A stretch of DNA of 64,000 nucleotides from Chloroflexota bacterium (GTDB lineage Bacteria; Chloroflexota; Ktedonobacteria; Ktedonobacterales; Ktedonobacteraceae): assembly GCA_902812455.1 (NCBI GenBank), contig CADDZH010000009.1, positions 13,361-77,360 of the forward strand, read 5' to 3'. Below the pieces are notes generated by a model that saw only the letters and a list, made by a program, of their open reading frames with translations, searched no databases and had not been told where the DNA came from. Made by a program: the position numbers and the translations under genes. Positions 2,080-56,209 of the stretch are shown here, piece after piece (the first letter of the stretch is position 1; every line of letters begins with the position of its first letter).

Positions 2080-2144
2080 TGTGACCACGCTGTGATAAAA
2101 GAACCCCCTTTTGTGACGCTTCAGTGATATCCCCCTGGCATAAC
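2080..2144 (+). promoter_or_regulatory. Regulon promoter 1 (OsmC): TGTGA four-box array
   Basis: Boxes TGTGA at 2080, 2091 and 2112, and AGTGA at 2123 (offsets 0, 11, 32, 43), with a -10-like CATAAC at 2139-2144, 16 bp after the start of the last box. There is no TTGACA-like -35. It faces the OsmC gene, whose ATG is at 2194. Confidence 0.75.
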
Positions 2145-2160
2145 TATAGTAGTGAATGAA

Positions 2161-2178
2161 TATTCGCATAAACGAATA
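2161..2178. promoter_or_regulatory. Inverted repeat in OsmC leader, possible ArsR-type operator
   Basis: A perfect 6-bp inverted repeat TATTCG-N6-CGAATA sits between the predicted start site of promoter 1 and the OsmC ribosome site. ArsR/SmtB repressors often bind ATTC-N-GAAT type palindromes, and an ArsR gene lies 870 bp downstream. A repressor operator in the leader is therefore plausible, but this is inference. Confidence 0.4.
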
Positions 2179-2193
2179 GAAAGGAAGAACATC

Positions 2194-2679
2194 ATGGCTG
2201 AACACATGACTGTTACCACGAGGCTAGAGACGGGGATGCGTTTTGATGCCGAGGCCGGTTCCGGCCATCATGTCACCCTTGATGCAGCAGAGCACAGCGG
2301 AGGCCACAACGAGGGCTTTCGCCCAATGGAGTTGCTCTTAGCTGGCCTATCCGGCTGCACCGGCATGGATGTCATCTCCATCTTGCGCAAGAAGCGCCAG
2401 CAGGTGACAGCCTATGAGGTGCATGTAAGCGGAATCCGCGCGGAAGAGCATCCGATGGTCTTTGTAGAGATTACCGTTGAGCACATCGTCACCGGGTATG
2501 GCATTCAACCAGAAGCGGTAGCGCGAGCTATAGAGCTTTCTAAGGAACGCTACTGTGGCGCAGGTGCCATGCTTGGCAAAGTAGCTCATCTCACACACAC
2601 TTTCCGCATCATTGATGCTGGGAATGCTCAGGACGGGACTCTAGCAGACAAGCAACTTATTGCTCCAGCGACTGCCTGA
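2194..2679 (+). CDS. OsmC/Ohr family peroxiredoxin-like protein
   Basis: OsmC-fold protein of 161 residues. The family reduces organic hydroperoxides or carries sulfur and persulfide chemistry through two conserved cysteines. Both are visible: C55 in GLSGCTGMDV and C121 in ERYCGAGAML. The PMELLLAGLSGC block is typical of the YhfA-like branch. The start is chosen at the ATG preceded by AAAGGAAGAAC; an upstream in-frame ATG at 2152 lies at the predicted transcription start and has no ribosome site. It is driven by regulon promoter 1 and may also be repressed through the leader palindrome. Its neighbours (SQR remnant, ArsR, DUF302, DUF2892) point to a sulfide/persulfide handling locus. Confidence 0.85.
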   Translation: MAEHMTVTTRLETGMRFDAEAGSGHHVTLDAAEHSGGHNEGFRPMELLLAGLSGCTGMDVISILRKKRQQVTAYEVHVSGIRAEEHPMVFVEITVEHIVTGYGIQPEAVARAIELSKERYCGAGAMLGKVAHLTHTFRIIDAGNAQDGTLADKQLIAPATA

Positions 2680-2734
2680 GCATGTATTGGTTCAGTTGCC
2701 CACAACTTGGAGTGGGTGACCATAGCATTCTTCC

Positions 2735-3037
2735 GTGCCACACAGGCCGGAAGGAGCAAGCACACACTCGAAGAGCGGCTCAGCAGCACACTTTGAGGCG
2801 AAAGTGGTAGCCCACAGGCTTATCGCGGAAATCCGTGGCGAGGAGCCTGGCAACGGGGAGGCAACTTACGATGGGGAGGTCATGTGCTTCCTGGAGACGG
2901 GCCAGAACCGGGCAACCCAACTGGTCTTCAACTATGAGCATCCGCCCCATCCCCCGCGACCCAGCCTGTACTATCATATGGAGAAGCAGCTCTTCAACCG
3001 GGCGTACTGGCATATCGTGCCTCAAGGATTGGTCTGA
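2735..3037 (+). pseudogene. C-terminal remnant of sulfide:quinone oxidoreductase-like flavoprotein
   Basis: About 85 codons that read like the C-terminus of a sulfide:quinone oxidoreductase or NDH-2-type flavoprotein: AHFEAKVVAHRLIAEIRG, then YDGEVMCFLETG, FNYEHPPHPPRPS and NRAYWHIVPQG. In intact relatives these follow the FAD-binding GD motif and include the membrane-anchoring tail. Here the FAD and NAD domains (about 300 residues) are missing and the frame starts abruptly in unrelated sequence. It sits between OsmC and an ArsR regulator, where a full SQR would be expected in a sulfide-response operon. The identification rests on pattern memory, without alignment. Confidence 0.6.
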
Positions 3038-3041
3038 AAAG

Positions 3042-3398
3042 ATGGAACAAGAACGAGAAGAACAGCTCTATCGACTGCAGGCAGACCTCTGCCGGGTGCT
3101 GGCTGAACCGACGCGCTTAAAACTCCTCTCGTTGCTGGGGGAGAGACCGCGACCAGTCAAGGAGCTGGTCGAAGCAACAGGAGAGCGCCAGGCCAAGATC
3201 AGCCAGCACCTGGCCATCATGCGCCAGCGGGGTATCATGCGCACCCAACGCACTGGCACGGAAATTCACTACTCCCTGGCCGATCCACGCATCCTGGAAG
3301 CATGCCGTATCACGCGAGAGATCTTACTCCAGCAACTCACGCGACACGCGAGCCTGGCAGCGCCCCTTGTTGCAACCAGAGCAGAGCAGAAAGAATAA
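3042..3398 (+). CDS. ArsR/SmtB family transcriptional regulator
   Basis: Small winged-helix repressor of 118 residues. The core RVLAEPTRLKLLSLL, the recognition helix region QAKISQHLAIMRQRGI and the wing RTQRTGTEIHYSLADP match the ArsR fold. Two cysteines, C17 in helix 1 and C88 in the C-terminal helix, could form a redox or persulfide sensor as in SqrR/BigR-type ArsR proteins, although the positions do not obviously match those sensors. No CxC metal box is present. The start is the ATG at 3042, seven bases after the stop of the flavoprotein remnant. DUF302 follows 18 bp downstream. A likely target is the palindrome in the OsmC leader. Confidence 0.85.
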   Translation: MEQEREEQLYRLQADLCRVLAEPTRLKLLSLLGERPRPVKELVEATGERQAKISQHLAIMRQRGIMRTQRTGTEIHYSLADPRILEACRITREILLQQLTRHASLAAPLVATRAEQKE

Positions 3399-3416
3399 TG
3401 AAAGAAGGAGAGAACA

Positions 3417-3818
3417 ATGAACACGACCTATGGTTTTGGGACAAGCTTGCAAGTCCCTTATGAAGAAGCTATTGCGCGTGTAAAGGAGGCGCTCCAGGCC
3501 GAGGGCTTCGGGGTGCTGACCGAGATCGATGTCCAGCGCACGCTGCGCGAAAAACTGGGTGCCGAGATGCAACCCTACATCATCCTGGGAGCTTGCAATC
3601 CTCAACTGGCGCATCGCGCACTTCAGCAGGAGCCAGATATTGGCCTGCTCTTGCCATGCAATGTCGTTGTGCGCGCTCAGGGAAAGGGGAGCCGTATCGA
3701 CATCGCTGATCCACAGGAGATGCTGGGCATAGTTGGCAATGAACAATTGCACCCCATCGCCGAGGAAGCGAAACAACGTTTGCAACGTGTTGTTGCTTCA
3801 CTTGGTGGTCAGCCATAA
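3417..3818 (+). CDS. DUF302 domain protein
   Basis: 133-residue cytosolic protein that is a single DUF302 domain: VPYEEAIARVKEALQAEGFGVLTEIDVQ, then a LGACNPQLAHRAL block, LLLPCNVVVR and the IADPQEML tail. The biochemical role of the family is not established. It is commonly found beside sulfur-handling genes and heavy-metal or redox genes. A good GGAG ribosome site precedes the ATG. It forms an operon with the ArsR gene upstream. The two conserved cysteines in LGACNP and LLPCN are present. Confidence 0.85.
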   Translation: MNTTYGFGTSLQVPYEEAIARVKEALQAEGFGVLTEIDVQRTLREKLGAEMQPYIILGACNPQLAHRALQQEPDIGLLLPCNVVVRAQGKGSRIDIADPQEMLGIVGNEQLHPIAEEAKQRLQRVVASLGGQP

Positions 3819-7268: not shown

Positions 7269-7331
7269 GTATGCAAGAAGAATCTCACAAAACGCTCACA
7301 TTTGCTTGTCTTTCATCACAAATCCATCACA
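7269..7331 (-). promoter_or_regulatory. Regulon promoter 2 (adhP): TGTGA four-box array
   Basis: On the plus strand TCACA occurs at 7285, 7296, 7316 and 7327 (reading leftward: offsets 0, 11, 31, 42), with CATACT as -10 on the minus strand at 7274-7269. It faces adhP. Confidence 0.75.
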
Positions 7332-7369: not shown

Positions 7370-7434
7370 TGTGATGAGAATGTGAGGTGGTGTAGCCACT
7401 TTGTGAGGGCATTGTGAGCAGCAGGTAGTACCCT
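7370..7434 (+). promoter_or_regulatory. Regulon promoter 3 (USP): TGTGA four-box array
   Basis: TGTGA at 7370, 7381, 7402 and 7413, exact offsets 0, 11, 32, 43. TACCCT at 7429-7434 occupies the -10 position. It is divergent from promoter 2 and faces the double USP gene at 7585. Confidence 0.78.
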
Positions 7435-9925: not shown

Positions 9926-9990
9926 AGCATAGCCTCGTCCCGGCACAAACACATCACAACGAGCCAGCTTTATATCACAAGTTGCTCACA
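9926..9990 (-). promoter_or_regulatory. Regulon promoter 4 (split USP): TGTGA four-box array
   Basis: TCACA at 9986, 9975 and 9954 and GCACA at 9943 on the plus strand, exact spacing 11/21/11. The minus-strand -10 is TATGCT at 9931-9926. It faces the USP at 9843. Confidence 0.78.
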
Positions 9991-10051: not shown

Positions 10052-10116
10052 TGTGACCTGCCTGTGTGATCGCCTCCCGTAAATGTGACCATTCTGTGAA
10101 GCCAGCACCCTATACT
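10052..10116 (+). promoter_or_regulatory. Regulon promoter 5 (rubrerythrin): TGTGA four-box array
   Basis: TGTGA at 10052, TGTGT at 10063, TGTGA at 10084 and 10095; the -10 is TATACT at 10111-10116. It is divergent from promoter 4 and faces rubrerythrin at 10240. Confidence 0.76.
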
Positions 10117-13663: not shown

Positions 13664-14080
13664 ATGAAACTGGCGAAGATCGCAAGAATGCTCCTGGGGT
13701 TATTATATGTGGGGGGCGGGATATTCAATCTTACCGTCACCACGAGCCTGATCCGGCGGAACCCCTTACTCTACAGCAAATGGGTGGCTAACCCGCTTGT
13801 GCCTTTCTACAAGCCCTTTTTTGCAGAGATCGTCACCCCCAACGCTCTCCTTCTAACCGTGCTTGTCGCTCTGTACGAACTCCTCATTGGAGGGCTTATC
13901 TGGAGTTCAGGGCGCGCTGTCAAAATTGGCTTGCTTGGTGGCATACTCTTCAATATTCTAATCGCACCCATGTGGAGTGGGCAAGCCGTCTTCAACCTCA
14001 TCCTCGCGGCATTACATGTCCCGCTCTTCAAATATAACTTTCCCCCCTTGTTTGCCCATAAATGGGGGATGAAATCGTGA
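13664..14080 (+). CDS. DoxX-like four-helix membrane protein
   Basis: 138-residue protein with four hydrophobic segments (ARMLLGLLYVGGGIFNL, ALLLTVLVALYELLIGGLI, GLLGGILFNILIAP, AVFNLILAALHVPLF). The layout is DoxX/DUF-type. Its role may be in redox or respiratory-chain accessory function, but this is not established. The ATG follows GGCAAGGAGGAATATAC. No TGTGA array precedes it. Confidence 0.65.
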   Translation: MKLAKIARMLLGLLYVGGGIFNLTVTTSLIRRNPLLYSKWVANPLVPFYKPFFAEIVTPNALLLTVLVALYELLIGGLIWSSGRAVKIGLLGGILFNILIAPMWSGQAVFNLILAALHVPLFKYNFPPLFAHKWGMKS

Positions 14081-14140
14081 CGGATTTGTGCTTGTGAAGG
14101 CTTCAAATGTGCTCTCTCTGTGAGGTTCATGCCATACACT
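14076..14140 (+). promoter_or_regulatory. Regulon promoter 6: TGTGA four-box array
   Basis: CGTGA at 14076, TGTGC at 14087 and 14108, TGTGA at 14119; the -10 is TACACT at 14135-14140. The spacing is exact although three boxes deviate by one base. The first box overlaps the stop codon of the upstream DoxX-like gene. Confidence 0.65.
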
Positions 14141-16919: not shown

Positions 16920-16984
16920 TGTGATGGCACTGTGAGAGTGCAGCCCACGTTAGTGATGGCTTTGTGAGACCCCTGCTGTACACT
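16920..16984 (+). promoter_or_regulatory. Regulon promoter 7: TGTGA four-box array
   Basis: TGTGA at 16920, 16931 and 16963, and AGTGA at 16952; the -10 is TACACT at 16979-16984. It faces the small gene at 17069. Confidence 0.76.
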
Positions 16985-18602: not shown

Positions 18603-18667
18603 TGTGAGCGAAATGTGAGAGGAAGACATGTTGCCGTGATTGTTTTGTGATTTCAGGGGGGTATCCT
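18603..18667 (+). promoter_or_regulatory. Regulon promoter 8 (acu operon): TGTGA four-box array
   Basis: TGTGA at 18603, 18614 and 18646, and CGTGA at 18635; the -10 is TATCCT at 18662-18667. It faces 18742-acuB-acuCA. Confidence 0.77.
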
Positions 18668-24722: not shown

Positions 24723-24787
24723 ACCATACTATGCACACCTCACACCGGCGTCACGTTTCTCAGTTCTGGTCTCTCACTCGCGTCACA
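24723..24787 (-). promoter_or_regulatory. Regulon promoter 9 (DUF4386 operon): TGTGA-type array
   Basis: Plus-strand boxes TCACA 24783, TCTCA 24772, TCACG 24751, TCACA 24740, exact offsets. The minus-strand -10 is TATGGT at 24728-24723. It faces the operon beginning at 24654. Confidence 0.62.
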
Positions 24788-25071: not shown

Positions 25072-25136
25072 TGTGAGTTTTTTGTGAGATTGTTGCCCGC
25101 TCTCGTGATATGTTTGTGATATGCACGACCTAAGAT
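25072..25136 (+). promoter_or_regulatory. Regulon promoter 10 (ferredoxin oxidoreductase operon)
   Basis: TGTGA at 25072, 25083 and 25115, CGTGA at 25104; the -10 is TAAGAT at 25131-25136. It faces the gene at 25245. Between this and promoter 9 (24788-25071) I see no gene. Confidence 0.77.
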
Positions 25137-28779: not shown

Positions 28780-28798
28780 AGGCTTAACCAATAAGCCT
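28780..28798. terminator. Hairpin between convergent operons
   Basis: AGGCTTA and TAAGCCT with a five-base loop lie exactly at the 3' end of the response regulator gene and after the membrane protein operon. No strong T-tract follows. Confidence 0.4.
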
Positions 28799-29526
28799 TA
28801 TATTGCCTGTGTGATCTCAGGGTGGGTGGCGAGATAATAGCCGACGCCCACTTTGGTCAGGATATAGCGCGGATGAGCAGGATCGGCTTCCAGTTTGTGC
28901 CGTAAGCGGTTGATATTCACCTGGAGCATATGGCTCTCTCCCACATACTCGGCTCCCCATACACGCTCCAACAGGAGGTCCTGCGTCACCACCCGCCCCG
29001 CATTTTGCGCCAGGTAGGCAAGGATACTATACTCTGTGGGAGTTAGAGGCACCTCCTGGCCAGCCAGGGTGACCAGGTGCTGGGAGTAATCAATGGTGAG
29101 ATCTCCAATGCTGAACATTGCCTGCAGGCCCTGTGTATGTTCTTTTGCCATCAACTGTGAGCGGCGCAAGACCGCCCGCACTCGTGCCAGCAGTTCGTCA
29201 ACGCTAAACGGCTTGGTCAGGTAGTCATCTGCTCCCAGGTCGAGGCCACGTACTTTGTCCTGTTCCTGTCCACGAGCAGTGAGAATAATGATCGGTACGG
29301 TTGAGTACTCGCGTACCCGTTGGCAAACGGTGAAGCCGTCCATCTTAGGCATCATCACATCAAGGATGACCAGATCGGGCATGCGGCTCTCAATCTGCTC
29401 CAGGGCTTGCTGGCCATCGCTAACCGGGATGACATCATAGCCTTCCAGTTCGAGGTTGCGCGTGACCAGCCTCAGAAGCTGCGGGTCATCGTCGGCTGCG
29501 ACAATGGTTATTTTCTTTGCTGGCAT
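28798..29526 (-). CDS. OmpR/PhoB-family response regulator
   Basis: 242 residues. Receiver domain: acidic pair D12-D14 region, phosphoacceptor D56 in LVILDVMMP, the conserved Thr in IILTARG and Lys in LTKPFS. The C-terminal winged helix (about 135-235) contains PLTPTEYSILAYLAQNAGRVVTQDLLLERVW and MLQVNINRLRHKLE, typical of the PhoB/KdpE branch. This class binds tandem direct repeats about 11 bp apart, the same geometry as the 25 arrays listed here. It lies 36 bp downstream of its kinase, and the operon itself is preceded by an array, so it is the best candidate for the regulator of the whole set. Confidence 0.92.
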   Translation of the reverse strand: MPAKKITIVAADDDPQLLRLVTRNLELEGYDVIPVSDGQQALEQIESRMPDLVILDVMMPKMDGFTVCQRVREYSTVPIIILTARGQEQDKVRGLDLGADDYLTKPFSVDELLARVRAVLRRSQLMAKEHTQGLQAMFSIGDLTIDYSQHLVTLAGQEVPLTPTEYSILAYLAQNAGRVVTQDLLLERVWGAEYVGESHMLQVNINRLRHKLEADPAHPRYILTKVGVGYYLATHPEITQAI

Positions 29527-29562: not shown

Positions 29563-31074
29563 CTATTGTATACTTTTTAGCCGATGGATGTCTTCTACGC
29601 TCGTGCTTGGCTCATCTATTGGCAGCAGGACATGGAAGGCGCTTCCTTCTCCCGGTGAGCTCTCAGCCCAGATGCTACCGTCATGCAATTCGACAATGCG
29701 CTTGCAGATTGCCAAACCGAGTCCAAGGCCACCCGTTTCTCTCGTGAGTCGCATATCGACGCGATGGAAACGGTCGAAGATGCGTCCAAGTTGCCCGGCA
29801 GGGATACCCATCCCGGTATCAGAGATGCACAGTTCTAACATGGGCTGTGGCGGCTCGACTGGTGTTTGAGTATCAGGGCTTCTGGTATGACCATTGGGGT
29901 CGAATGCTGATACCTGCTCGAGAGCGCGCCGGCTTTGCATGACTGGACGTACCAGAACGCGGATGGTGCCGCCTTGCGGGGAATAGGTGATCGCATTCTC
30001 AAGCACATTGTCCAGCACTTCTCGCAGGCGCCGCCGGTCGGCCTGGATCAGCGGAACGGTTGTGGCGGACTTTCTGTCCAGTGTCTCCAGTTGCAGGTGG
30101 AGAGTGAAGCGGCCAGGAGCCTGCTGGTTGACCCGCTCCTCGAGAGCAATAAGCGCTTCCTGCACCAGGCGGGCCATGTCCACCGGCGAGCGCTGGATGC
30201 TGATCGCCCCGGTATCCAGTTGCGACATTTCCAGCAAGCGCTCAATAATGAGTTCCAGCCGGTCGCTCGCCTCGTTAATAGCGAGCAAGAACTGGTGCCG
30301 CTCCTCGCGAGACAGACGCCGCTCATGGCGCAAGAGCGTGGCGGCATAGCCTTTAATAGAGGCCAGTGGGCTGCGCAGTTCATGGCTGATGGTGGCCAGC
30401 AGTTCCGCTTTGAGCAACTCCATGCCTCGCAGGGCTTCCCGCTCTGCCGTCTTCTCAAGTTCCTGGATACGTTCAGCCTGCAAGAGGCTCACGATCACAG
30501 CACCAACGGCATCTGCCACAAAAGGCAGGATTTTGTGCCCTTGTTCGGAGGCCCTGGCGCACACCCCTTCTTCCAACCCATCCCAGCCCAGGACTAGTTG
30601 AACATGCAGGCGCTCCTTCCCCAGCGTGGCTGGCATCCCTGCCTGGCTTTGAGAGAAGCTGCTTTCTCCCGCAGGCCCATCGAGAGCTACATGATACATG
30701 ATCCAGCATGAGAGGTCTGGTGTGGCCTGGATGGCAGCGGCAGCGGCTCCTGCTGATGGAGAGGTAGACAGCAGCGAGGATGCCTCTTCCTCGTGCATCC
30801 TATGCATGGCTAACACACGCGTTCCCTTGCGGTCCGGCACTCGAGGCGAAGCGGATGGTTCAGGTGCTACAGGCTCCTCACTTGTTAGAAGGAATATAGC
30901 TCCACGTTGTGCCGAACAAAGCGCGAGCAGGCGCTCTAGCAATCTATCTGCCACCCGCTGCCCTGTCGCTTCTGAGCCGATCCCCACGATCTTCGCGAGT
31001 TTCGCCAGATCGATCAGTGCCGCCGTTACTTCAGGCATAGCTAATCCAGGGGATGTTATTTCGGGCGCTTCCAT
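29563..31074 (-). CDS. Soluble sensor histidine kinase with N-terminal GAF-like domain
   Basis: 503 residues, no transmembrane segment, so it senses a cytosolic signal. Residues about 15-200 look like a GAF domain (LLERLLALCSAQRGAIFLLT, later HKILPFVADAVGAVIVSLL). Residues 221-290 are the dimerisation/phosphoacceptor domain with H231 in ATISHELRSPLASIKG. The ATPase domain has the N box DNVLENAITYSPQGG, G1 DTGMGIPAG and G2 TGGLGLGLAICKRIVELHDG. GAF kinases can bind heme, nucleotides or other ligands; the ligand here is unknown. Cys53, Cys123 and Cys172 are possible redox residues. It forms an operon with the response regulator and is preceded by promoter 11. Confidence 0.9.
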   Translation of the reverse strand: MEAPEITSPGLAMPEVTAALIDLAKLAKIVGIGSEATGQRVADRLLERLLALCSAQRGAIFLLTSEEPVAPEPSASPRVPDRKGTRVLAMHRMHEEEASSLLSTSPSAGAAAAAIQATPDLSCWIMYHVALDGPAGESSFSQSQAGMPATLGKERLHVQLVLGWDGLEEGVCARASEQGHKILPFVADAVGAVIVSLLQAERIQELEKTAEREALRGMELLKAELLATISHELRSPLASIKGYAATLLRHERRLSREERHQFLLAINEASDRLELIIERLLEMSQLDTGAISIQRSPVDMARLVQEALIALEERVNQQAPGRFTLHLQLETLDRKSATTVPLIQADRRRLREVLDNVLENAITYSPQGGTIRVLVRPVMQSRRALEQVSAFDPNGHTRSPDTQTPVEPPQPMLELCISDTGMGIPAGQLGRIFDRFHRVDMRLTRETGGLGLGLAICKRIVELHDGSIWAESSPGEGSAFHVLLPIDEPSTSVEDIHRLKSIQ

Positions 31075-31145: not shown

Positions 31146-31209
31146 ACTATACGAAGGAATGCTCACAACCAAATCACGAAATGTGCGCTCGTATCACAAT
31201 CACATCACA
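31146..31209 (-). promoter_or_regulatory. Regulon promoter 11 (two-component system): autoregulatory array
   Basis: Plus-strand TCACA at 31205, 31194 and 31163, TCACG at 31174; the minus-strand -10 is TATAGT at 31151-31146, 16 bp after the last box. It drives the kinase/regulator operon, implying autoregulation. Confidence 0.78.
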
Positions 31210-31544: not shown

Positions 31545-31609
31545 AGCGTACAGGATTGATCTCACAACCCGCTCACAATCTGGCAAGCAGGCATCACAAA
31601 ATAGTAACA
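31545..31609 (-). promoter_or_regulatory. Regulon promoter 12 (zinc ribbon): TGTGA four-box array
   Basis: Plus-strand TAACA 31605, TCACA 31594, 31573 and 31562; the minus-strand -10 is TACGCT at 31550-31545. It faces the gene at 31505. Confidence 0.7.
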
Positions 31610-31733: not shown

Positions 31734-31798
31734 TGTGATGATTTTGTGATATCCCAATCGCAGGCTGTAACCATTTTGTGATATCAAGCGCATATGCT
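31734..31798 (+). promoter_or_regulatory. Regulon promoter 13 (PFOR): TGTGA four-box array
   Basis: TGTGA at 31734, 31745 and 31777, TGTAA at 31766; the -10 is TATGCT at 31793-31798. It faces nifJ/PFOR at 31868. Confidence 0.8.
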
Positions 31799-40194: not shown

Positions 40195-40290
40195 AGCATA
40201 TTCACCGCGTATCTCAAACACATCACAGCAGCGCCAAAAAGCATCACATTGCAATCACAGAATTCGGAAACAGGTCACAGCGATATCACA
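40195..40290 (-). promoter_or_regulatory. Regulon promoter 14 (cupredoxin): extended six-box array
   Basis: Plus-strand TCACA at 40286, 40275, 40255, 40244 and 40223, degenerate TCTCA at 40212, forming three 11-bp pairs. The minus-strand -10 is TATGCT at 40200-40195. The distal boxes overlap the stop codon of the upstream gene. Confidence 0.72.
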
Positions 40291-42175: not shown

Positions 42176-42240
42176 AGTATCGTCGATTGACCTCACATTG
42201 CCATCACAACGGCTCGCTCGATTCTCACAGAATGATCACA
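42176..42240 (-). promoter_or_regulatory. Regulon promoter 15 (CPBP): TGTGA four-box array
   Basis: Plus-strand TCACA at 42236, 42225, 42204 and 42193, all perfect; the minus-strand -10 is GATACT at 42181-42176. Confidence 0.8.
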
Positions 42241-42308: not shown

Positions 42309-42375
42309 TGTGAGTGATTTGAGATAAAATAATCCCTAATTGTGATATGCCTGTGAGAGAGATGATGTATATACT
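42309..42375 (+). promoter_or_regulatory. Regulon promoter 16 (cupredoxin): TGTGA four-box array
   Basis: TGTGA at 42309, 42341 and 42352, TGAGA at 42320; the -10 is TATATA at 42368 or TATACT at 42370. It faces the gene at 42421. Confidence 0.72.
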
Positions 42376-42841: not shown

Positions 42842-44866
42842 TTAGTCGCTCTCCTGCTCAGCAGCAAGGGGGAGTGCCAAGAAGAAGGTCGAGCCTTTGC
42901 CTTCTTCTGACTCAAACCAGAGCGCTCCCCCGTGCTGCACGACCAGTTCGCGGCTGATGTACAGGCCCAGCCCCGTCCCGCTAATCCCCCAGGCCAGGGC
43001 GTTCTCCGCACGCATGAAGCGCCCGAAGATCTGGGCGTGTTGATGCTCAGGGATGCCGATGCCCCTATCCTGGACACTGATGCGCACAACCCGGCTGGCC
43101 GTTTCTTCCAAGATGCTTATGGTGATCGGGCCTCCCTGCGGGCTGTACTTGATAGCGTTACCGATCAGATTGGTAAGGACTTGCTCGATACGCCCCGGGT
43201 CGATGTCTGCCACCACTGCTGCCTGCGCCGTGCGCACCTCCACCTGGTGCCGCGTCGTCGTCTGCTGCAACTGCGCCGCGACACGCTGTGCCAGGGGGAT
43301 CATATTGGTTGGTGCCCGCTGCAAGTGCAAGCGCCCGGCCTGTAAGCGTGTCACGTCCAAGAGTTCCTCCGTAAGCGTGGCCAGGCGGGTTGTGGCCAGC
43401 TCGATCTCCTCCAGCGCTTCCTGCTGCCAATCAGCGAGCTCCGGCCCGCGCCCCCGCGCCGTTTGGACGAGCAGCATATCGGCAAAGCCCTTGAGCGCGG
43501 CCAGGGGCGTCCGCAATTCATGGGCCACAATGCCCACAAACTCATCCTTGAGCCGTTCGGCTTCTTTGAGGGCGCTGACATCTTGATGCACCACCAGGGC
43601 CACACCTTCGCCAGCTCCCCCCTGTACATATTGCCCTGCCTCCCGCTGCGATGGGCTTCCCAGGCGCGCTCCTGGCAAAGGCACCGCGCTGACCAGTACA
43701 GGCAGGCTCGAGCCGCCAGGTTGTCGGATCAACTCCTGCTGTTGCAAGACCGTCTCTCCCTGCCGCACTGCACGGATGGTCGCATATCGCTCAGGGGCAA
43801 TGAGTCGCCCTTGCGCATCAAAGATGCCGATGCCGTGCCTGCTGAGAAACGCCAGCATCGGCTGCTCAACCGGCCACTGTGCTCCCCAGACGCTGGCGGC
43901 TGCACGATTGGCGAGCATCAGGCGGGCATCTGGCCCATGCACGAGATAGACCCCACTGGGCAAGGCATCCAGCACATCCCGCAGGAAGTCCAGGCGTGCC
44001 ACCGTCTCGGCATGGGCCGCTTGCTCAGCCTGCTCAAGCTGGCGGCGCCGGGTGATATTCCGGTTGATCTCCAGGATGGCAACGGGCTGGCCCTGCTCAT
44101 CGCGCACCAGAGCCCAGCGACTTTCCACGATCACGATGCTCCCATCCCGGCTAGTATGCACGAGTTCGCCCTCCCAGCGGCCATCGCGCTCAAGCTGGGC
44201 ATCAATGTCTGAGAGAGCACTGGGGAAACGCGTTTTGAGCAACGTATGGATGACCCGGCCCTGCGCCTCTTGTGCCGACCAGCCATACAGCTCCTCGGCT
44301 CCCTTATTCCAGAAAGTGATGCGACCAACGGGGTCACGCTCGATGATGGCATCATGCGCGAGATTGATCAGGCAGGCCTGCTGGCGAATCTGCTGTAATT
44401 GCTGGAGCCGCTCTCGCTCGGCGGCTCGCTGAGCGCTCATATCGCGAATGGCAGCCAGGACATGCAGCGCCCCATCCAGCAGCACAGGACTCAGGCTGAT
44501 TTCCACCGGAAATTCGGTGCCGTCCTTGCGCCATCCGGCCAGGTGCAGCCCTATACCCATCGGACGCGTGCGCGGGGCAGCAAAATAGCGCTTCATATGG
44601 GCAGCATGCACCTCACGGAAGCGCGGCGGCAGCAGCAGTTCGAGTGGCTGCCCTACTAGCTCCTCTCGCGAATAGCCAAAGGCGGTTTCTGCCTGCCTGT
44701 TCACCATCGTGATGGCCCCAGCTTGATTGACAACCACCAACGCATCAGGCAACACGTTCAGGAACGGAAGAATATCGGCAGAAGAGATGGGGATGGATAC
44801 TGATGAGGAAGAAGCAAGGCCGTTCTGAGATTTCCGTATGCCAGTCATTCGTAGATGTTCCTTCAT
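42842..44866 (-). CDS. Multi-PAS sensor histidine kinase
   Basis: 674 residues, soluble. PAS 1 (about 35-150: PDALVVVNQAGAITMVNRQAETAFGYSREELVG), PAS 2 (about 165-290: DAIIERDPVGRITFWNKGAEELYGWS), a third PAS-like domain (about 305-440: LDALPSGVYLVHGPDARLMLANRAAAS). Then the phosphoacceptor in FVGIVAHELRTPLAALKGFA and the ATPase boxes NLIGNAIKYSPQGG, DRGIGIPEH and GTGLGLYISRELV. No response regulator is adjacent, so it may feed an orphan regulator, possibly the one at 28798. The start is ATG 44866 after AGAGGTACT. No array precedes it. Confidence 0.9.
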   Translation of the reverse strand: MKEHLRMTGIRKSQNGLASSSSVSIPISSADILPFLNVLPDALVVVNQAGAITMVNRQAETAFGYSREELVGQPLELLLPPRFREVHAAHMKRYFAAPRTRPMGIGLHLAGWRKDGTEFPVEISLSPVLLDGALHVLAAIRDMSAQRAAERERLQQLQQIRQQACLINLAHDAIIERDPVGRITFWNKGAEELYGWSAQEAQGRVIHTLLKTRFPSALSDIDAQLERDGRWEGELVHTSRDGSIVIVESRWALVRDEQGQPVAILEINRNITRRRQLEQAEQAAHAETVARLDFLRDVLDALPSGVYLVHGPDARLMLANRAAASVWGAQWPVEQPMLAFLSRHGIGIFDAQGRLIAPERYATIRAVRQGETVLQQQELIRQPGGSSLPVLVSAVPLPGARLGSPSQREAGQYVQGGAGEGVALVVHQDVSALKEAERLKDEFVGIVAHELRTPLAALKGFADMLLVQTARGRGPELADWQQEALEEIELATTRLATLTEELLDVTRLQAGRLHLQRAPTNMIPLAQRVAAQLQQTTTRHQVEVRTAQAAVVADIDPGRIEQVLTNLIGNAIKYSPQGGPITISILEETASRVVRISVQDRGIGIPEHQHAQIFGRFMRAENALAWGISGTGLGLYISRELVVQHGGALWFESEEGKGSTFFLALPLAAEQESD

Positions 44867-45210
44867 AGTACCTCTTCTGTGCAGTAGGTGAGCCAATGCT
44901 TGATAAATACTGCCAGGTGCTGTATGAAGAGGCTTGCCAGTTACAGGCGCTCCAGACGGCTCAGGACAAGCAAGCTAGAGGAACTATCGCTGTTCCAGCA
45001 AAGCCCATACTCGTTTCTGCCCGCTCTTCATCCAAAGAAACAACTCTTTCTCTACCGAACAGATTACGCGATTTCTGCCCCAAAAGCAAGTATGACTTGT
45101 AAAAGATTGTGATTGTGTTGCTATCTGTGCGGTTATCGAAACATGCCGAGGCCCTTGCACTTAATATGCAGGGATATAGGGCGCGATGCACGTAGGCCTG
45201 GGTCTATGCA
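44867..45210. other. Intergenic stretch without recognised features
   Basis: 344 bp between the PAS kinase start and the 3' end of the PP2C gene. TGTGA-like pentamers at 45108 and nearby do not have the 11/21/11 spacing. No credible ORF or hairpin stands out. Confidence 0.5.
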
Positions 45211-46225: not shown

Positions 46226-46290
46226 AGTGTACTGCTCTGGCCACACAAGACCATCACAAATCAGCCATTTCCTATCACGTAAGCATCACA
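46226..46290 (-). promoter_or_regulatory. Regulon promoter 17 (PP2C): TGTGA four-box array
   Basis: Plus-strand TCACA 46286, TCACG 46275, TCACA 46254, ACACA 46243; the minus-strand -10 is TACACT at 46231-46226. Confidence 0.72.
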
Positions 46291-46328: not shown

Positions 46329-46394
46329 TGTGACATATCTGTGATTTGCCCTTCATCACTTTGTGATTGAATTGTGAGGTGCCGGTGCTATCTT
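46329..46394 (+). promoter_or_regulatory. Regulon promoter 18 (MaoC-Pta): TGTGA four-box array
   Basis: TGTGA at 46329, 46340, 46362 and 46373 (offsets 0, 11, 33, 44); the -10 is TATCTT at 46389-46394. It is divergent from promoter 17. Confidence 0.76.
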
Positions 46395-47849: not shown

Positions 47850-49782
47850 ATGGACAAGCAAGCCATCGCCGTATTGCCGGCGCAACAGGCGCTTGGGCAG
47901 CTACATACTTCGCTCGAAGGGTTGAGTTCGAGCGAAGCCGAGCAACGTCGTGCGACCTCCGGCCCCAATATTCTCACCAAAAGCAAGCATACAGCGCTGG
48001 GCATCCTTGTAAGGCAATTGAAAAGTTCCCTCATTTACCTGTTAGCCTTTGCCAGTCTCTTCAGCTTTGTCCTCGGCGATCTTTCGGATGGCATCATCAT
48101 CGCCATCATCCTCGTGATCAACACCTCACTCGGCTTTGTGCAGGAATACCGCGCAGAGCGAGCTGTCGAAAAGCTCTCTTCCTTTATTCGCAAGAAGGTG
48201 GTCGTCAAACGGCTCTCCTCGCTGGAGGATCTCGGCAATATTACGCTGCTCTGCACCGATAAAACGGGAACGCTGACCGAGGGGAAGATGCGCATTCAGA
48301 AGATCGTGGCAGAGGATCCCCTGCGCTGGCAGCTTTTCGCCGCTGCCAGCGTCGAGTCTACGGGGGAAAAAGGCGCATTGCAGTCAAACTCCTACGATGC
48401 GGCCTTTCTCGCCTACATCTCGCCCGAGATGCAGGAGCAGGCCAGGGAGTACCGGCAGGTGCAGGCCTTCCCCTTTGATCCAGAGCGGCGCAGGAGATGC
48501 GTGGTCCTCGAAGCGAGCAGCACGCACACACGTTACCTGGTCGTGCTGGGCGCGGTCGAGACCCTGCTTGCGCTCAGCGATGGCCAGGATCAGCAAAAAG
48601 AGCAGTATCTCGCCGAAGGGGCTGCGCGACCTGGCCCTGGCTTATCGCGAGCTACCTGCCTCCAGGCCCATTGACATCCCGCAGTATGAGCAGCAGCTAA
48701 CTTTTTTGGGTTTTGTCACGCTCGCCGATCCCCTGCGGCCAACTGCGAAACAGGCCATCGAGCAGGCAGAAAACCTGGGGGTGGCCATCAAAATCCTGAG
48801 TGGCGATAGCAGGGAAGTCGCGGCCTACATCGGGAACCAGATCGGACTTGGAGGGGATGTTTATACCGGCGATGAACTGGCAAAGATGCCCCCTGACGAA
48901 CTCGAGCGCGTGGTGAAGAGTTGTAACGTCTTTGCCCGTGTTTCTCCTGCCCAGAAATATACCATCATTGAGACCCTTAAACGCGATCACGTTGTTGGCT
49001 ACCAGGGCGATGGCATCAACGATGCCCCGGCGCTCAAACTGGAGGATGTAGCCCTGGCGGTAGATAGCGCGGCGGACGTGGCCAAAGAAAGCGCCGATAT
49101 AGTGCTGCTGAACAAGGACCTGGGCGTGATCATCAATGGCATTTACGGCGGGCGAGCAATCTTCCTCAATATCGATAAGTACCTGAAATACACCATGGTC
49201 GGCAACTTCGGCAATTTGTTTGCCCTGGCTATTCTCTACCTCCTCTCGCTCAACTTGCCGCTCCTTCCCGTGCAGGTATTGTTAAGCAGTCTGATCACGG
49301 ATGTCCCCCTGATTACCATCGCTTCCGACAGGGTCGCGAGCCGGGAGGTGATGAGGCCAGAGCAGTACAATACGCGATCGTTGATGCTGATCTCGCTGGT
49401 GCTGGGCTCGTGTACGGCGCTGTTCGAGCTGCTCTACTTTGCGCTCGTGAGCACCCGGCCACCGTTGTTCGTCCAGACCAACATGTTCCTCTTTCTCACC
49501 TTGCTCCAGTTCATTGTCATTGTGTCCATCCGCAACCGTGATTTCTTGTGGAGAGGCACAAGGCCATCGAAGCTCTTAGCGACTGCCGTCGTGTTGGCAC
49601 TGGTCGTCTCGTTTGCGTTACCCTATATCCCGCTCTCAGCGCACCTGTTCTCGTTTACACCGCTGCCAGGGCCCGAGCTGGCGATCGTCTTCGGGCTGGC
49701 CCTGCTCTACCTGGTGGTCCTGGATGTCCTGAAGGTCTGGTACTACCGGCTCATTGAACGAGAAGCCAGTATCGTGATGTGA
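47850..49782 (+). pseudogene. P-type cation ATPase, actuator domain deleted and frameshifted
   Basis: The N-terminus (residues 1-120) has the P2/P3-type cation ATPase start with M1-M2, ending SSFIRKKVVVKR. It then jumps directly to LSSLEDLGNITLLCTDKTGTLTEGKM, the phosphorylation site. The actuator domain with TGES and helices M3-M4 (roughly 150 residues) are absent. In intact relatives a KK-x-VVKR-like string occurs at both ends of the missing part, so recombination between them could explain the loss. A second lesion is one extra G in the GGGG run at 48618-48621: the first frame stops at 48674, while GLRDLALAYRELP onward continues in the +1 frame to 49782 with GDGINDAPALK and six C-terminal helices. 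It follows MaoC-Pta closely. Confidence 0.85.
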
Positions 49783-49837
49783 TTGTGACAGTCGGGCCAG
49801 GGTATGTGACAGCAATGTGACGCCTGGGCTCTATTCT
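49773..49837 (+). promoter_or_regulatory. Regulon promoter 19 (USP remnant): TGTGA four-box array
   Basis: CGTGA at 49773, TGTGA at 49784, 49805 and 49816; the -10 is TATTCT at 49832-49837. The array is intact although the gene behind it is decayed. The first box lies in the last codons of the ATPase. Confidence 0.74.
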
Positions 49838-50411: not shown

Positions 50412-50413
50412 CT

Positions 50414-51943: not shown

Positions 51944-52008
51944 AGCATACAACGCTCTTCTCACAACTGCATCACGAAAACACAAGACGGCATCACAAAG
52001 CTATCACA
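51944..52008 (-). promoter_or_regulatory. Regulon promoter 20 (leftward, toward short ORF and murB)
   Basis: Plus-strand TCACA 52004, 51993 and 51961, TCACG 51972; the minus-strand -10 is TATGCT at 51949-51944. Confidence 0.76.
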
Positions 52009-52138: not shown

Positions 52139-52143
52139 TGAGA

Positions 52144-52208
52144 AGCATAGTATGATGGACTCACATACTCATCACAGAAAGCCCCTGTGACATCACAGTT
52201 GGGACACA
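52144..52208 (-). promoter_or_regulatory. Regulon promoter 21 (leftward, toward candidate RNA)
   Basis: Plus-strand ACACA 52204, TCACA 52193, 52172 and 52161; the minus-strand -10 is TATGCT at 52149-52144. Confidence 0.75.
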
Positions 52209-52275: not shown

Positions 52276-52340
52276 TGTGACGAAATTGTGACGAGGAGGA
52301 TTTTCTCTGTGACCATTTTGTGAAACCTATGGGCTATCCT
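52276..52340 (+). promoter_or_regulatory. Regulon promoter 22 (PhoU): TGTGA four-box array
   Basis: TGTGA at 52276, 52287, 52308 and 52319, all perfect; the -10 is TATCCT at 52335-52340. Confidence 0.82.
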
Positions 52341-53241: not shown

Positions 53242-53306
53242 TGTGACAGAATTGTGAGAGAAGTTTCTCTCCTTGTGATGGCATTGTGAACTGGTGGGCT
53301 TATGCT
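53242..53306 (+). promoter_or_regulatory. Regulon promoter 23 (adenylate kinase): TGTGA four-box array
   Basis: TGTGA at 53242, 53253, 53274 and 53285, all perfect; the -10 is TATGCT at 53301-53306. Confidence 0.83.
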
Positions 53307-53436
53307 TTCTCCGGATGAAAAGTAATGGCTGGGATACGGCTACGGTCTCTGCCATACAGTGATACAATACAGTGAGGCAGTGTTCATAGTTACATGCATC
53401 CTCATTGTCGCCAGTGAGGTGCAAGAAAGGAAAGCC

Positions 53437-54174: not shown

Positions 54175-54226
54175 CTAACAAATTCGTCACAATGCAACGC
54201 TGCAATCTAACAAATCGGTCACAATT
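54175..54226 (+). repeat. Two direct repeats CTAACAAAT..GTCACAAT, 32 bp apart
   Basis: A CTAACAAAT block followed by TCGTCACAATG (54175-54194) and by CGGTCACAATT (54207-54226). The 32-bp period equals the box-to-box period of the regulon arrays, but 11-bp partners are missing. Confidence 0.5.
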
Positions 54227-54368: not shown

Positions 54369-55013
54369 TTACACAGCTAGGGGCTTGGCTTTCGGCTCGC
54401 TCTTGTGGATCAGCCGGCCAGTCCAGGGGGTGCCAAGCAAGGGCAGCACGTAGCTATCCAGGCCATAGTAGCCTGCGACACGCCAGGCCAGGATGACGAA
54501 CAGCGCCAGGAGGCCCAGGATCGGGTTCGTGCTGACCGTGCCTGCTAGCAGGTAGTTCATATTCATGAACACCCCGAAGAAGGAGGCGATGCCCGTCAGC
54601 AGTCCCAGGATCAGCGCGATGCCAACCAATACTTCACCGAAGGTGACCATGTAGGCAAAGATGCCGGCATTAGGCAGCACGACTGTCTGCAAGAACCAGG
54701 CATACCAGCTCTGCACAGCCGGATGCGGGCCTGCTGTTTGCGCCAGCGCTCCTTTGACAAAGCCGGCAACAGCGGCTCCATCATGGCCACTAAAGACCCA
54801 GGGGCTCCCGATCTTGGTGCCAAAGGACGAATCGAAGGTAAATGAATAGCCCGTCAGCTTCTCCAGGCCGGCGGTGAGCCATTCATAGCCAATATACAAG
54901 CGGACGATCAACCAGAACCAGGCCATGCGGGTATCGGCAAACAGGAACTTCGCAATCGGGGGTTCTGGAATATGGGTTGCTTCTTTTGGTCGAATGACCG
55001 TTGTGTTACGCAT
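54369..55013 (-). CDS. DoxX family membrane protein 1
   Basis: 214 residues, four main hydrophobic segments. WLIVRLYIGYEWLTAGLEKLTG, a loop with GFVKGALAQTAGPHPAVQSWYAWFLQTVVLPNA, then NMNYLLAGTVSTNPILGLLALFVILAWRVAGYYGLD. The pattern is DoxX/DoxD; relatives are subunits of thiosulfate:quinone oxidoreductase or partners in oxidative-stress complexes. It is a clear paralog of the next gene (55318-56091). The start is ATG 55013 with GAGAGGAG. It is controlled by promoter 24. Confidence 0.85.
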   Translation of the reverse strand: MRNTTVIRPKEATHIPEPPIAKFLFADTRMAWFWLIVRLYIGYEWLTAGLEKLTGYSFTFDSSFGTKIGSPWVFSGHDGAAVAGFVKGALAQTAGPHPAVQSWYAWFLQTVVLPNAGIFAYMVTFGEVLVGIALILGLLTGIASFFGVFMNMNYLLAGTVSTNPILGLLALFVILAWRVAGYYGLDSYVLPLLGTPWTGRLIHKSEPKAKPLAV

Positions 55014-55092
55014 GTTGTCTACTCCTCTCTCATGCAATGAGAGCTTGTATCTGTTGAGATAATCTCACAACTTCACGAAAGAACGTTTTCCT

Positions 55093-55118
55093 GTCGAATG
55101 GATCTTGTTTCATTCGAC
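55093..55118. promoter_or_regulatory. Palindrome in DoxX 1 leader
   Basis: GTCGAATG-N10-CATTCGAC, a perfect 8-bp inverted repeat just downstream of the promoter 24 -10. Possible operator or RNA hairpin. Confidence 0.45.
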
Positions 55119-55124
55119 ATCCTT

Positions 55125-55189
55125 ATGATAACCCCCTGAAATCACAGCACGGTCACTTTAGTGGGCAAAAATATCACATGCGCATCACA
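55125..55189 (-). promoter_or_regulatory. Regulon promoter 24 (DoxX 1): TGTGA four-box array
   Basis: Plus-strand TCACA 55185, 55174 and 55142, TCACT 55153; the minus-strand -10 is TATCAT at 55130-55125. Confidence 0.75.
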
Positions 55190-55255
55190 ATTACCAGGTA
55201 GCTCTAATAGGAAGAGAGGCATGTATTCTGCAAGGATAAGCGCTATAGCAAAAAA

Positions 55256-55284
55256 GTCTCCGGCTGCTTGAAGCAGCCAGAGAC
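55256..55284 (-). terminator. Terminator of DoxX gene 2
   Basis: Hairpin GTCTC-x-GGCTGCTT/AAGCAGCC-x-GAGAC with a one-base loop as written, followed on the minus strand by TTTTTT. Rho-independent terminator for the gene ending at 55318. Confidence 0.85.
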
Positions 55285-55317
55285 AATTCATTACCATACC
55301 CATGGCGACGCGAGAGC

Positions 55318-56091
55318 CTACGTCCGGCGAACCGTGGCAGCCGGTTGAGGTCGGAATATGGCTCCCGGTTTCCAGGGCAGGCCTAACGCAGGAAGCAACC
55401 AGCGGTCAAAGCCGATCCAGCCACAGACCCTCCATGACAGAACCAGGAATAGGCCGAGCACTCCCAGCACGGGATTGACACTGACCGTGCCCGCCAGCAG
55501 GTAATTCAGGTTCATTAACACCCCAAAGCCTGCCGCTATCCCCGTCAGGATGCCCAGGAGCAGTCCTACGCCCACCGCAAATTCTCCCCACGTGATCAGC
55601 ATCGACCAGACGCCCGCATTGGGCAGCACAATATGCTGTAAAAACCAGGCATACCAGCCTTGCACCGCTGGATTGGGGCCGGCACTCTTGGCCAACGCCC
55701 CTGCCACAAAGCCTTTGATCGCTTTGCCTGATATGCCCCAGGCAGGCGAGGTAATCTTTTCCCACCCGGCCAGCAACCACTCGGCCCCCACATACATGCG
55801 CACCACAAACCACATGGGAGACGATCCAGTTGAGCCGAGGAAAAAGCGGGAGATCGATGGCTCAGGAAACTGCTCGGCTGGAGCACTCACCACTAAAGCA
55901 GAGCGCTCCTGGGCATATCGCACAAAGGCCAGGATCAGCGCGAGGACAAACAGGATAGGCAGCGCTATCCCCCAATAGTCATTAGCCGTTGAAGCGGTAA
56001 TGTCCAGGATGATATGCAGAAGTGTCCACACTCCTGCCAGAACAACAATAATCAAAGCCAGAGTAAACGTTGCATTCCGTTGTGTAGGCAT
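55318..56091 (-). CDS. DoxX family membrane protein 2
   Basis: 257 residues. Two extra N-terminal hydrophobic segments (residues 8-30 and 40-58) precede a DoxX core nearly parallel to DoxX 1: FVVRMYVGAEWLLAGWEKI, GFVAGALAKSAGPNPAVQGWYAWFLQHIVLPNA, NLNYLLAGTVSVNPVLGVLGLFLVLSWRVCGWIGFD. The ATG at 56091 follows GAAAGGAGGAAAG. It is controlled by promoter 25; its leader has TGGAAC-N6-GTTCCA (56113-56130). Confidence 0.85.
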   Translation of the reverse strand: MPTQRNATFTLALIIVVLAGVWTLLHIILDITASTANDYWGIALPILFVLALILAFVRYAQERSALVVSAPAEQFPEPSISRFFLGSTGSSPMWFVVRMYVGAEWLLAGWEKITSPAWGISGKAIKGFVAGALAKSAGPNPAVQGWYAWFLQHIVLPNAGVWSMLITWGEFAVGVGLLLGILTGIAAGFGVLMNLNYLLAGTVSVNPVLGVLGLFLVLSWRVCGWIGFDRWLLPALGLPWKPGAIFRPQPAATVRRT

Positions 56092-56145
56092 AACCTCTTT
56101 CCTCCTTTCAAGTGGAACCCATTCGTTCCAACTTCCAATACTCTT

Positions 56146-56209
56146 ATTTTTGAACATCAACATCACAAAGGAGTCACATCAGGGCTTTACGCATCACGAA
56201 CACGTCACA
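56146..56209 (-). promoter_or_regulatory. Regulon promoter 25 (DoxX 2): TGTGA four-box array
   Basis: Plus-strand TCACA 56205, TCACG 56194, TCACA 56174 and 56163. The -10 position (AAAAAT at 56151-56146) is poor. It is the rightmost array in the window. Confidence 0.65.

What the first reader, a model, noticed from the sequence alone, without database searches (positions are those of the whole stretch)
2080..56209. Clustered regulon of 25 promoters with one rigid architecture: two TGTGA-N6-TGTGA pairs plus a TATGCT-type -10
Reading every intergenic region, I found 25 sites where TGTGA (or a one-base variant) occurs four times at offsets 0, 11, 32 and 43 (31/42 or 33/44 in a few), with a -10 hexamer starting about 16 bp after the last box in nearly all cases. 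TATGCT appears as -10 at 9926, 31793, 40195, 51944, 52144 and 53301. No -35 is evident. First-box or lowest coordinates: 2080, 7285(-), 7370, 9943(-), 10052, 14076, 16920, 18603, 24740(-), 25072, 31163(-), 31562(-), 31734, 40212(-), 42193(-), 42309, 46243(-), 46329, 49773, 51961(-), 52161(-), 52276, 53242, 55142(-), 56163(-). Direct repeats of 11 bp that replace the -35, about 11 nt upstream of -10, are how PhoB/OmpR-family activators work. The double pair, two helical turns apart, implies two dimers. I know of no described regulon with this exact site, and such density in 54 kb is remarkable.
Basis: partly seen in the sequence, partly recalled or inferred. Interest (0 to 1): 0.95.

Follow-up and report, generated by a model that had tools for sequence, protein, structure and literature searches.

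The report
Class-wide four-box promoter regulon in Ktedonobacteria
This stretch of DNA, likely from a Ktedonobacteria bacterium, carries 26 sites with one rigid four-box layout in front of a promoter-like element, and the same layout recurs beside one response-regulator gene in dozens of related genomes; that regulator likely binds the boxes as two dimers and is predicted to switch on genes for stress and low-oxygen survival.

Summary
Confirmed and extended. All 25 listed sites are there; I add one (54176, minus strand) and a third pair at one promoter (40244). Simulated sequences give about 0.01 site per window; of all 1024 five-letter words TGTGA, with its reverse complement, ranks first in this geometry. 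All 26 have A at +17 from the start of box 4, 22 T at +16, 24 T at +21: a -10-like TANNNT. The pattern occurs in 41 of 47 genomes of the class, in 7 of 263 other genomes of the phylum (once each), never reversed. It clusters around orthologs of the OmpR/PhoB-type regulator at 28798-29526: sites near 43 of 52 orthologs, 0 of 20 paralogs; in 27 of 49 testable loci a same-strand site lies upstream of the regulator, likely autoregulation. Next genes are rich in universal stress proteins, DoxX, copper and Fe-S redox proteins and one of two cytochrome bd groups; a neighbouring kinase has a FixL-like PAS domain. Best reading: a class-wide low-oxygen/redox stress regulon, likely activated by two head-to-tail dimers in place of a -35. 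Binding, transcription starts, dimer number and signal are untested.

The parts
28798..29526 (-). Candidate regulator: OmpR/PhoB-type response regulator (receiver + winged helix), likely phospho-acceptor Asp56
   Evidence: Pfam Response_reg and Trans_reg_C; Asp12, Asp13, Asp56, Thr83, Lys105 invariant in 44 of 44 aligned sequences; linked to the motif
29563..31074 (-). Partner histidine kinase 1, upstream of the regulator in the same apparent operon; Pfam matches only in the kinase part
   Evidence: HisKA and HATPase_c; site 31163(-) in front of it; first 211 residues without PDB match up to E 10
42842..44896 (-). Histidine kinase 2 with PAS domains; first PAS resembles the heme PAS of FixL; relatives lie beside the regulator in many genomes
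2080..2127 (+). Four-box site, offset 32; next gene OsmC-like 2152-2679
7285..7331 (-). Four-box site, offset 31, exact; next gene zinc-type alcohol dehydrogenase 6082-7158
7370..7417 (+). Four-box site, offset 32, exact; next gene tandem Usp 7531-8574
9943..9990 (-). Four-box site, offset 32, TATGCT at 9926; next genes Usp 9415-9957 (start probably internal) and Usp 8797-9405
10052..10099 (+). Four-box site, offset 32; next gene rubrerythrin 10240-10659
14076..14123 (+). Four-box site, 3 mismatches; next ORF 14191-14682 without Pfam match
16920..16967 (+). Four-box site, offset 32; next ORF small 17033-17293 (no Pfam match), then 17770-18531
18603..18650 (+). Four-box site, offset 32; next gene CBS-domain protein 18961-19722, then histone-deacetylase-like 19568-21706
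24740..24787 (-). Four-box site, 2 mismatches; next gene 23556-24461 (DUF4386), 278 nt away
25072..25119 (+). Four-box site, offset 32; next gene Fe-S/FAD oxidoreductase 25245-27221
31163..31209 (-). Four-box site, offset 31, in front of the kinase 1 - regulator operon (likely autoregulation)
   Evidence: a same-strand upstream site also in 27 of 49 testable ortholog loci
31562..31609 (-). Four-box site, offset 32; next ORF small 31260-31538
31734..31781 (+). Four-box site, offset 32, TATGCT at 31793; next gene pyruvate:ferredoxin oxidoreductase 31856-35506
40212..40290 (-). Six-box array (three pairs; 40212 and 40244), TATGCT at 40195; next gene 39485-40141 without Pfam match
42193..42240 (-). 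Four-box site, exact; next gene Rce1-like 41222-42157
42309..42356 (+). Four-box site; next gene cupredoxin 42421-42837
46243..46290 (-). Four-box site, 2 mismatches; next gene PP2C-type phosphatase 45211-46092
46329..46377 (+). Four-box site, offset 33, exact; next gene enoyl-CoA hydratase/phosphate acetyltransferase 46411-47829
49773..49820 (+). Four-box site; no ORF of 70 aa or more starting within about 340 nt
51961..52008 (-). Four-box site, TATGCT at 51944; small ORF 51496-51723, then MurB-like 50414-51445
52161..52208 (-). Four-box site, TATGCT at 52144; no ORF of 70 aa or more starting within about 340 nt
52276..52323 (+). Four-box site, exact; next gene PhoU-like 52350-53225
53242..53289 (+). 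Four-box site, exact, TATGCT at 53301; next gene adenylate kinase 53359-54105
54176..54223 (-). Additional four-box site not in the finding (2 mismatches); next ORF small and doubtful
55142..55189 (-). Four-box site; next gene DoxX-like 54369-55037
56163..56209 (-). Four-box site, offset 31, weak -10; next gene 55318-56091

Best explanation
The 26 sites are one rigid promoter-like element that recurs beside orthologs of a single OmpR/PhoB-type response regulator across what is likely the class Ktedonobacteria, and the regulator likely activates these promoters by binding as two head-to-tail dimers in place of a -35. Likely sequence of events: one or both neighbouring histidine kinases (one with a FixL-like PAS domain) would sense low oxygen or redox state and phosphorylate Asp56; each phosphorylated dimer would read one TGTGA-N6-TGTGA pair; the proximal pair (box starts about -39 and -28 if the -10 hexamer starts at -12) would hold sigma region 4 over a good -10, and the distal pair, 32 bp or about three turns upstream on the same face, would stabilise it. 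The regulator operon would feed back on itself through its own site. The output is predicted to be survival at low oxygen or under redox stress. Shown by my calls: motif, spacing, -10-like element, conservation, linkage, gene content. Inferred: binding, dimer number, activation, signal, physiological role.
For: Non-chance architecture. Pattern (offset 32, up to 2 mismatches) in 41 of 47 class genomes, reversed control 0 in all; single hits in 7 of 263 other genomes of the phylum. Regulator orthologs (64% identity or more) stand apart from paralogs (57% or less); the 37 ortholog genomes have 222 hits in 231.9 Mb, the 10 others 7 in 51.8 Mb; two or more hits in 31 of 37 against 1 of 10. 109 sites (up to 3 mismatches, offset 31-33) in the ortholog loci, 868 kb, 43 of 52 loci and (my count) 34 of 37 genomes; 0 in 20 paralog loci, 344 kb. 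Same-strand site within 2.3 kb upstream of the regulator in 27 of 49 testable loci, 17 of the 27 with offset 31; 0 of 20 paralogs. Positions 202 and 204 in the presumed recognition helix are Gln in 43 and Asn in 41 of 44 ortholog sequences, Arg and Tyr in 20 of 20 paralogs. Best TANNNT at +16 in 112 and +17 in 18 of 154 distinct sites. Of 129 next-gene proteins given to Pfam: 22 histidine kinases, 21 Usp, 15 DoxX, 7 multicopper oxidases, 4 cytochrome bd subunit I. Site just in front of cytochrome bd in 7 of 18 loci of the high-scoring group, no site in 12 of 12 of the other. Kinase 2 PAS: best PDB match FixL, E 5e-18, its His aligned with one in FixL and present in 10 of 10 sequences covering it.
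Against: No binding or transcription data. 9 of 52 ortholog loci have no site in the fetched stretch, and 22 of 49 testable lack a same-strand site within 2.3 kb upstream; some are second or third copies in one genome, and three genomes (G003, G008, G013) have no site near their fetched ortholog. A few of the 27 upstream sites lie far from the regulator and may serve another gene (for example L189, L245, L246). One genome with an ortholog (G013, 2.7 Mb) has no hit at all, and five without have one or more. Linkage is also what co-inherited genes would give, and loci share descent, so counts are not independent. Other DNA-binding genes that the window lacks were not looked for near the sites. 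Kinase 1 N-termini differ between relatives, so the signal may differ. In the FixL alignment the residue at the oxygen-contacting Arg is Leu in this window (role of the Arg recalled).
Confidence: 0.75

Rival explanations
1. The sites are bound by a different regulator encoded elsewhere, and the response regulator at 28798 is merely one of its co-inherited targets.
For: The kinase-regulator operon itself carries a site (31163), as a target would; ten genomes without an ortholog have 7 hits in all, three of them in G050. Regulators absent from the window were not searched for.
Against: Sites lie near regulator copies on two different contigs of one genome in G018, G030, G031 and G042 (some further copies there have none); 11-bp direct repeats are what OmpR/PhoB winged helices read. 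Of the window's own genes, those with relatives in 10 or more of 52 ortholog loci are the regulator, both kinases, three Usp, one small ORF (50245-50463), DoxX 54369-55037 and its neighbour 55318-56166; the other DNA-binding candidate, the sigma factor at 4255, has a relative in 1 of 52.
Confidence: 0.13
2. A CRP/FNR-family protein binds TGTGA half-sites.
For: TGTGA is the CRP half-site and 11 bp its half-site distance (recalled).
Against: Exact pairs are direct (29); inverted TGTGA-N6-TCACA occurs 0 times in the window.
Confidence: 0.02
3. The regulon exists but serves something other than low oxygen (for example general stationary-phase, metal or oxidative stress).
For: OsmC, rubrerythrin, Usp, multicopper oxidase and cupredoxin genes also fit oxidative or metal stress; the sensor part of kinase 1 is unknown and variable.
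Against: Pyruvate:ferredoxin oxidoreductase, cytochrome bd and the FixL-like PAS point to oxygen.
Confidence: 0.35
4. The repeats are a mobile or structural repeat family unrelated to transcription.
For: High local density, 26 in 54 kb.
Against: Apart from the boxes and the -10-like hexamer little is conserved, spacers are free; sites stand in front of same-strand ORFs in 137 of 154 cases.
Confidence: 0.02

Closest known systems
Escherichia coli PhoB and the pho box
   Same: Two direct repeats of 11 bp, each CTGTCAT plus 4 bp, bound by the PhoB C-terminal domain (passage of PMC2648988); TGTCA against TGTGA differs at one base; boxes in place of the -35 (recalled).
   Different: Here two pairs at a fixed 32-bp distance in nearly every promoter; the regulator does not reach the PhoB model cut-off (207.2 of 296.2 bits); of the window targets one PhoU-like protein recalls phosphate control.
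Mycobacterium tuberculosis PhoP
   Same: Two 7-bp direct repeats 11 bp apart (passages of PMC9645806); consensus TCACAGC-N4-TCACAGC (recalled) reads GCTGTGA on the other strand, the same half-site; PhoP is among the PDB relatives.
   Different: Double pairs at fixed spacing are not the rule there (recalled); RegX3, RpaA and MtrA are closer PDB matches to this regulator.
DosR dormancy regulon of mycobacteria
   Same: Low-oxygen survival, universal stress proteins, two sensor kinases, clustered targets (recalled).
   Different: DosR has a LuxR/NarL-type helix-turn-helix (recalled); here a winged helix.
Low-oxygen-activated (lxa) locus of Burkholderia cenocepacia
   Same: One gene cluster with six universal stress proteins, tied to limited oxygen (passages of PMC6127331).
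   Different: The word motif occurs 0 times in the main text of that paper; homology of the regulators not tested.

Membership tests
OmpR/PhoB response-regulator family | Receiver domain with phospho-acceptor Asp plus C-terminal winged helix | tested here: met
   Pfam PF00072 and PF00486 above cut-off; Asp56 in 44 of 44
OmpR/PhoB response-regulator family | Binds direct repeats head to tail | not testable with these tools
   Direct repeats of 11 bp are present at the linked promoters; binding needs an experiment
PhoB (phosphate regulon) | Scores above the curated PhoB model | tested here: not met
   TIGR02154: 207.2 bits, cut-off 296.2; none of the 25 NCBIfam models shown (of 86 matched) was reached
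MtrA, YycF/WalR, RpaB, KdpE | Scores above the curated equivalog model | tested here: not met
   YycF 241.9 of 340, RpaB 238.4 of 330, MtrA 231.3 of 300, KdpE 199.9 of 325
CRP/FNR regulon | Inverted half-sites (recalled) | tested here: not met
   0 inverted against 29 direct exact pairs
DosR regulon | LuxR/NarL-type regulator (recalled) | tested here: not met
   Trans_reg_C winged helix instead
FixL-type heme PAS (kinase 2) | Sequence relationship and heme-ligand His | tested here: met
   Best PDB match FixL, E 5e-18; a His is aligned and present in 10 of 10 sequences covering it; that this His is the heme ligand of FixL is recalled
FixL-type heme PAS (kinase 2) | Binds heme and senses oxygen | not testable with these tools
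   FixL's oxygen-contacting Arg (recalled) aligns with Leu here

The most novel reading that the evidence does not exclude
A whole bacterial class runs its low-oxygen survival programme through one undescribed regulator whose promoters demand two dimers locked 32 bp apart on one face of the helix, extendable to three (six-box arrays), with a 31-bp version favoured for its own operon: a DosR-like regulon reinvented on a PhoB chassis.
Probability: 0.5. Interest if true: 0.78.

Novelty: new variant of a known kind. Interest (0 to 1): 0.66.

Why it matters
The searches named here showed no described regulon or binding motif for Ktedonobacteria (a class of Chloroflexota with large genomes; recalled). 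This gives one: a motif specific enough to list likely targets in genomes of the class from sequence alone, a candidate regulator and two candidate sensors. The fixed double-pair spacing also makes a clean test case for how PhoB-type activators cooperate across helical turns, since 31, 32 and 33 bp variants and six-box arrays occur naturally.

Tried and rejected
CRP-type reading: rejected by orientation. An island inserted at tRNA-Leu (1943-2025), next to which the first site lies: no copy of 12 bases or more of the tRNA and its 35-nt flank elsewhere in the window and G+C between 0.54 and 0.59 throughout, so not supported. A conserved middle box in the 21-bp gap: none seen. The ECF sigma factor at 4255 as driver: relative in only 1 of 52 ortholog loci. 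That a 31-bp pair offset goes with a -10 at +17: 10 of 28 against 8 of 101, Fisher 7e-4; related operon promoters weigh in these counts, so I draw no mechanism from it. Sensor part of kinase 1: no PDB match, structure prediction unavailable. In one search I passed on 129 of the 137 downstream ORFs; dropped were one duplicate, one alternative start of the same ORF and six small ORFs (some other small ones stayed in). For 17 of 154 distinct sites no downstream ORF was found. Twelve orthologs were not: ten were added, two were already held (L001, L002).

Full report
Observation. Printing the 25 listed places and scanning the window with four TGTGA boxes at offsets 0, 11, 31-33, 42-44 and up to three mismatches recovered all 25. 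It added 54176(-) and a third pair at 40244(-) in front of 40212(-). Sequences simulated with the window's dinucleotide frequencies give 0.01 match per window. A scan over pair offsets 16 to 59 at up to two mismatches peaks at 32 (21), 31 (4) and 33 (1), with 12 elsewhere. Running all 1024 five-letter words through the same geometry puts TGTGA and its reverse complement first (28 each); the other ten of the 12 words shown are shifted forms. Aligned on box 4, the 26 sites show conserved letters in the four boxes and at +16 (T, 22 of 26), +17 (A, 26 of 26), +18 (T, 18), +20 (C, 18) and +21 (T, 24), a -10-like hexamer. Apart from the boxes I see no further -35-like hexamer and no conserved box in the 21-bp gap. 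Exact pairs are direct (29) and never inverted (0), and 27 of 29 lie outside my gene calls.

Where the window comes from. No genome is held for it. Its regulator's closest relatives by translated search are Ktedonobacteraceae and Thermogemmatispora contigs (76, 75 and 71% identity), so I take it to be a member of Ktedonobacteria; this is an inference from one gene. The class and phylum searched are those of G003, the genome of L003 (named Ktedonobacteraceae); the tool does not print their names.

Conservation of the motif. With the pattern fixed at offset 32 and up to two mismatches, 41 of 47 genomes of the class have matches, 229 in all in 283.7 Mb, and the reversed pattern has none (totals from the printed table). 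In 301 genomes of the phylum, 38 of them from this class, 33 of the 38 match, and 7 of the other 263 match, once each; the reversed pattern again has none (the split by handle is my count). Around the regulator's more distant relatives in other taxa (L004 to L080, 77 loci) a scan at up to two mismatches found no site.

The regulator. The response regulator at 28798-29526 has a receiver and a winged-helix domain and reaches none of the 25 NCBIfam cut-offs shown. Class-wide, the listed matches fall into two groups with a gap: 64% identity or more (52 genes in 37 genomes), and 57% or less. Two or more motif hits occur in 31 of 37 genomes with the first group against 1 of 10 without (Fisher 3e-5), zero hits in 1 of 37 against 5 of 10. 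I fetched up to 20 kb around all 52 orthologs (53 loci in the count, one contig held twice and without sites) and, as control, around 20 paralogs. Sites at up to three mismatches: 109 in the ortholog loci, in 43 of 52 loci and 34 of 37 genomes; none in the paralog loci. A same-strand site within 2.3 kb upstream of the regulator is present in 27, absent in 22 and not testable (contig end) in 3; in paralogs 0 of 20. Of the 27, 17 have the 31-bp offset also seen in the window's operon site (31163). In most of them the site lies just in front of the kinase-regulator operon; in a few (L189, L245, L246) it may serve another gene. At positions 202 and 204, in the presumed recognition helix, ortholog sequences have Gln (43 of 44) and Asn (41 of 44), paralogs Arg and Tyr (20 of 20 each) (the 44 are the window and 43 loci). 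These facts make this regulator much the likeliest reader of the boxes, though linkage alone cannot prove it.

The promoter geometry across the class. Among 154 distinct sites (window, 43 regulator loci and 39 motif loci) the best TANNNT within +13 to +20 starts at +16 in 112, at +17 in 18, elsewhere in 5, and is weak in 19. In 40 ortholog loci the pair offsets at up to two mismatches are 31 (24), 32 (41), 33 (1) and 21, 42 or 43 (4 together). Six-box arrays also occur in Usp loci L222 and L234 at up to three mismatches, and in L220 and L228 only if four are allowed.

What it may control. In the window the genes next to sites include OsmC, Usp proteins, rubrerythrin, pyruvate:ferredoxin oxidoreductase, an Fe-S/FAD oxidoreductase, a cupredoxin, a phosphotransacetylase, DoxX, a PhoU-like protein and adenylate kinase. 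Of 129 next-gene proteins from the window and relatives: 22 HisKA kinases, 21 Usp, 15 DoxX, 7 multicopper oxidases, 5 cupredoxins, 4 cytochrome bd subunit I; loci were chosen around the regulator or the motif and some are close relatives, so the kinase count partly reflects that choice. The class has 567 Usp matches in 283.7 Mb, so 16% Usp among next genes is far above background. From the other side, 19 of the 30 Usp loci returned (best Usp score per genome) hold a site on either strand within their roughly 3.4 kb: 19 of 27 in genomes with the regulator and 0 of 3 without. Of 30 cytochrome bd loci, the 18 of the high-scoring group (558 bits or more) include 7 with a same-strand site just upstream, two with one 2.3-2.4 kb upstream and several with only an opposite-strand site or none; the 12 of the other group (501 bits or less) have none (the split by score is mine).

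Signal. A second kinase, 42842-44896, has relatives of 40% identity or more in 39 of 52 ortholog loci, many of them over the kinase half only; in paralog loci the best match is 39% (by a length criterion alone one search counted 39 of 52 and 7 of 20). Its first PAS domain matches FixL best among solved structures (E 5e-18), then a multi-sensor kinase entry, further FixL entries and the oxygen sensor DosP. The FixL His position is kept in 10 of the 10 aligned sequences that cover it; in most other loci the match starts after this domain, so the input part differs. The N-terminal part of kinase 1 has no PDB match and varies; in 4 of the 17 aligned sequences it looks PAS-like by eye.

Mechanism and its status. 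Direct 11-bp repeats, a winged-helix regulator and a -10 without -35 fit PhoB-type activation, in which the activator contacts sigma at the -35 place (recalled). Two pairs 32 bp apart would put two dimers on the same face of the helix. Dimer number, activation, phosphorylation by either kinase and oxygen as the signal are inferred.

Comparison. PhoB's box is two 11-bp repeats with CTGTCAT (passage). M. tuberculosis PhoP reads two 7-bp repeats 11 bp apart (passages), whose recalled consensus is the same TGTGA half-site on the other strand. The Burkholderia lxa locus is a comparable stress cluster (passages). None of the searches (listings only, showing 8 of 360 papers) showed a paper with this motif or a regulon for this class; subscription journals are mostly not covered.

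Noticed in passing
window 18961-21706 (+): A CBS-domain protein followed by a histone-deacetylase-like protein with a weak acetyltransferase match at its C-terminal part; the pair recalls AcuB and a fused AcuC-AcuA (names recalled).
   Followed up: partly
window 15653-16876 (+): A rubrerythrin-VIT1 gene appears as two ORFs in the same frame separated by a TGA stop (16370-16372); the first carries the start and the second the rest of the VIT1 profile.
   Followed up: partly
window 47850-49782 (+): A P-type cation ATPase appears as two overlapping ORFs carrying the N- and C-terminal families.
   Followed up: partly
window 40212-40290 (-); L222, L234 (and, with four mismatches, L220, L228): Six-box arrays: a third TGTGA pair 31-33 bp further upstream.
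   Followed up: partly
window 49773 (+) and 52161 (-): Four-box sites without an ORF of 70 aa or more starting within about 340 nt; possible small RNAs or short proteins.
   Followed up: no
window 59871-61538 (-): Ser/Thr protein kinase domain just outside the cluster.
   Followed up: no
G050, G173: G050 has three motif hits but no close regulator ortholog; G173, outside the class, has one hit with a single mismatch.
   Followed up: no
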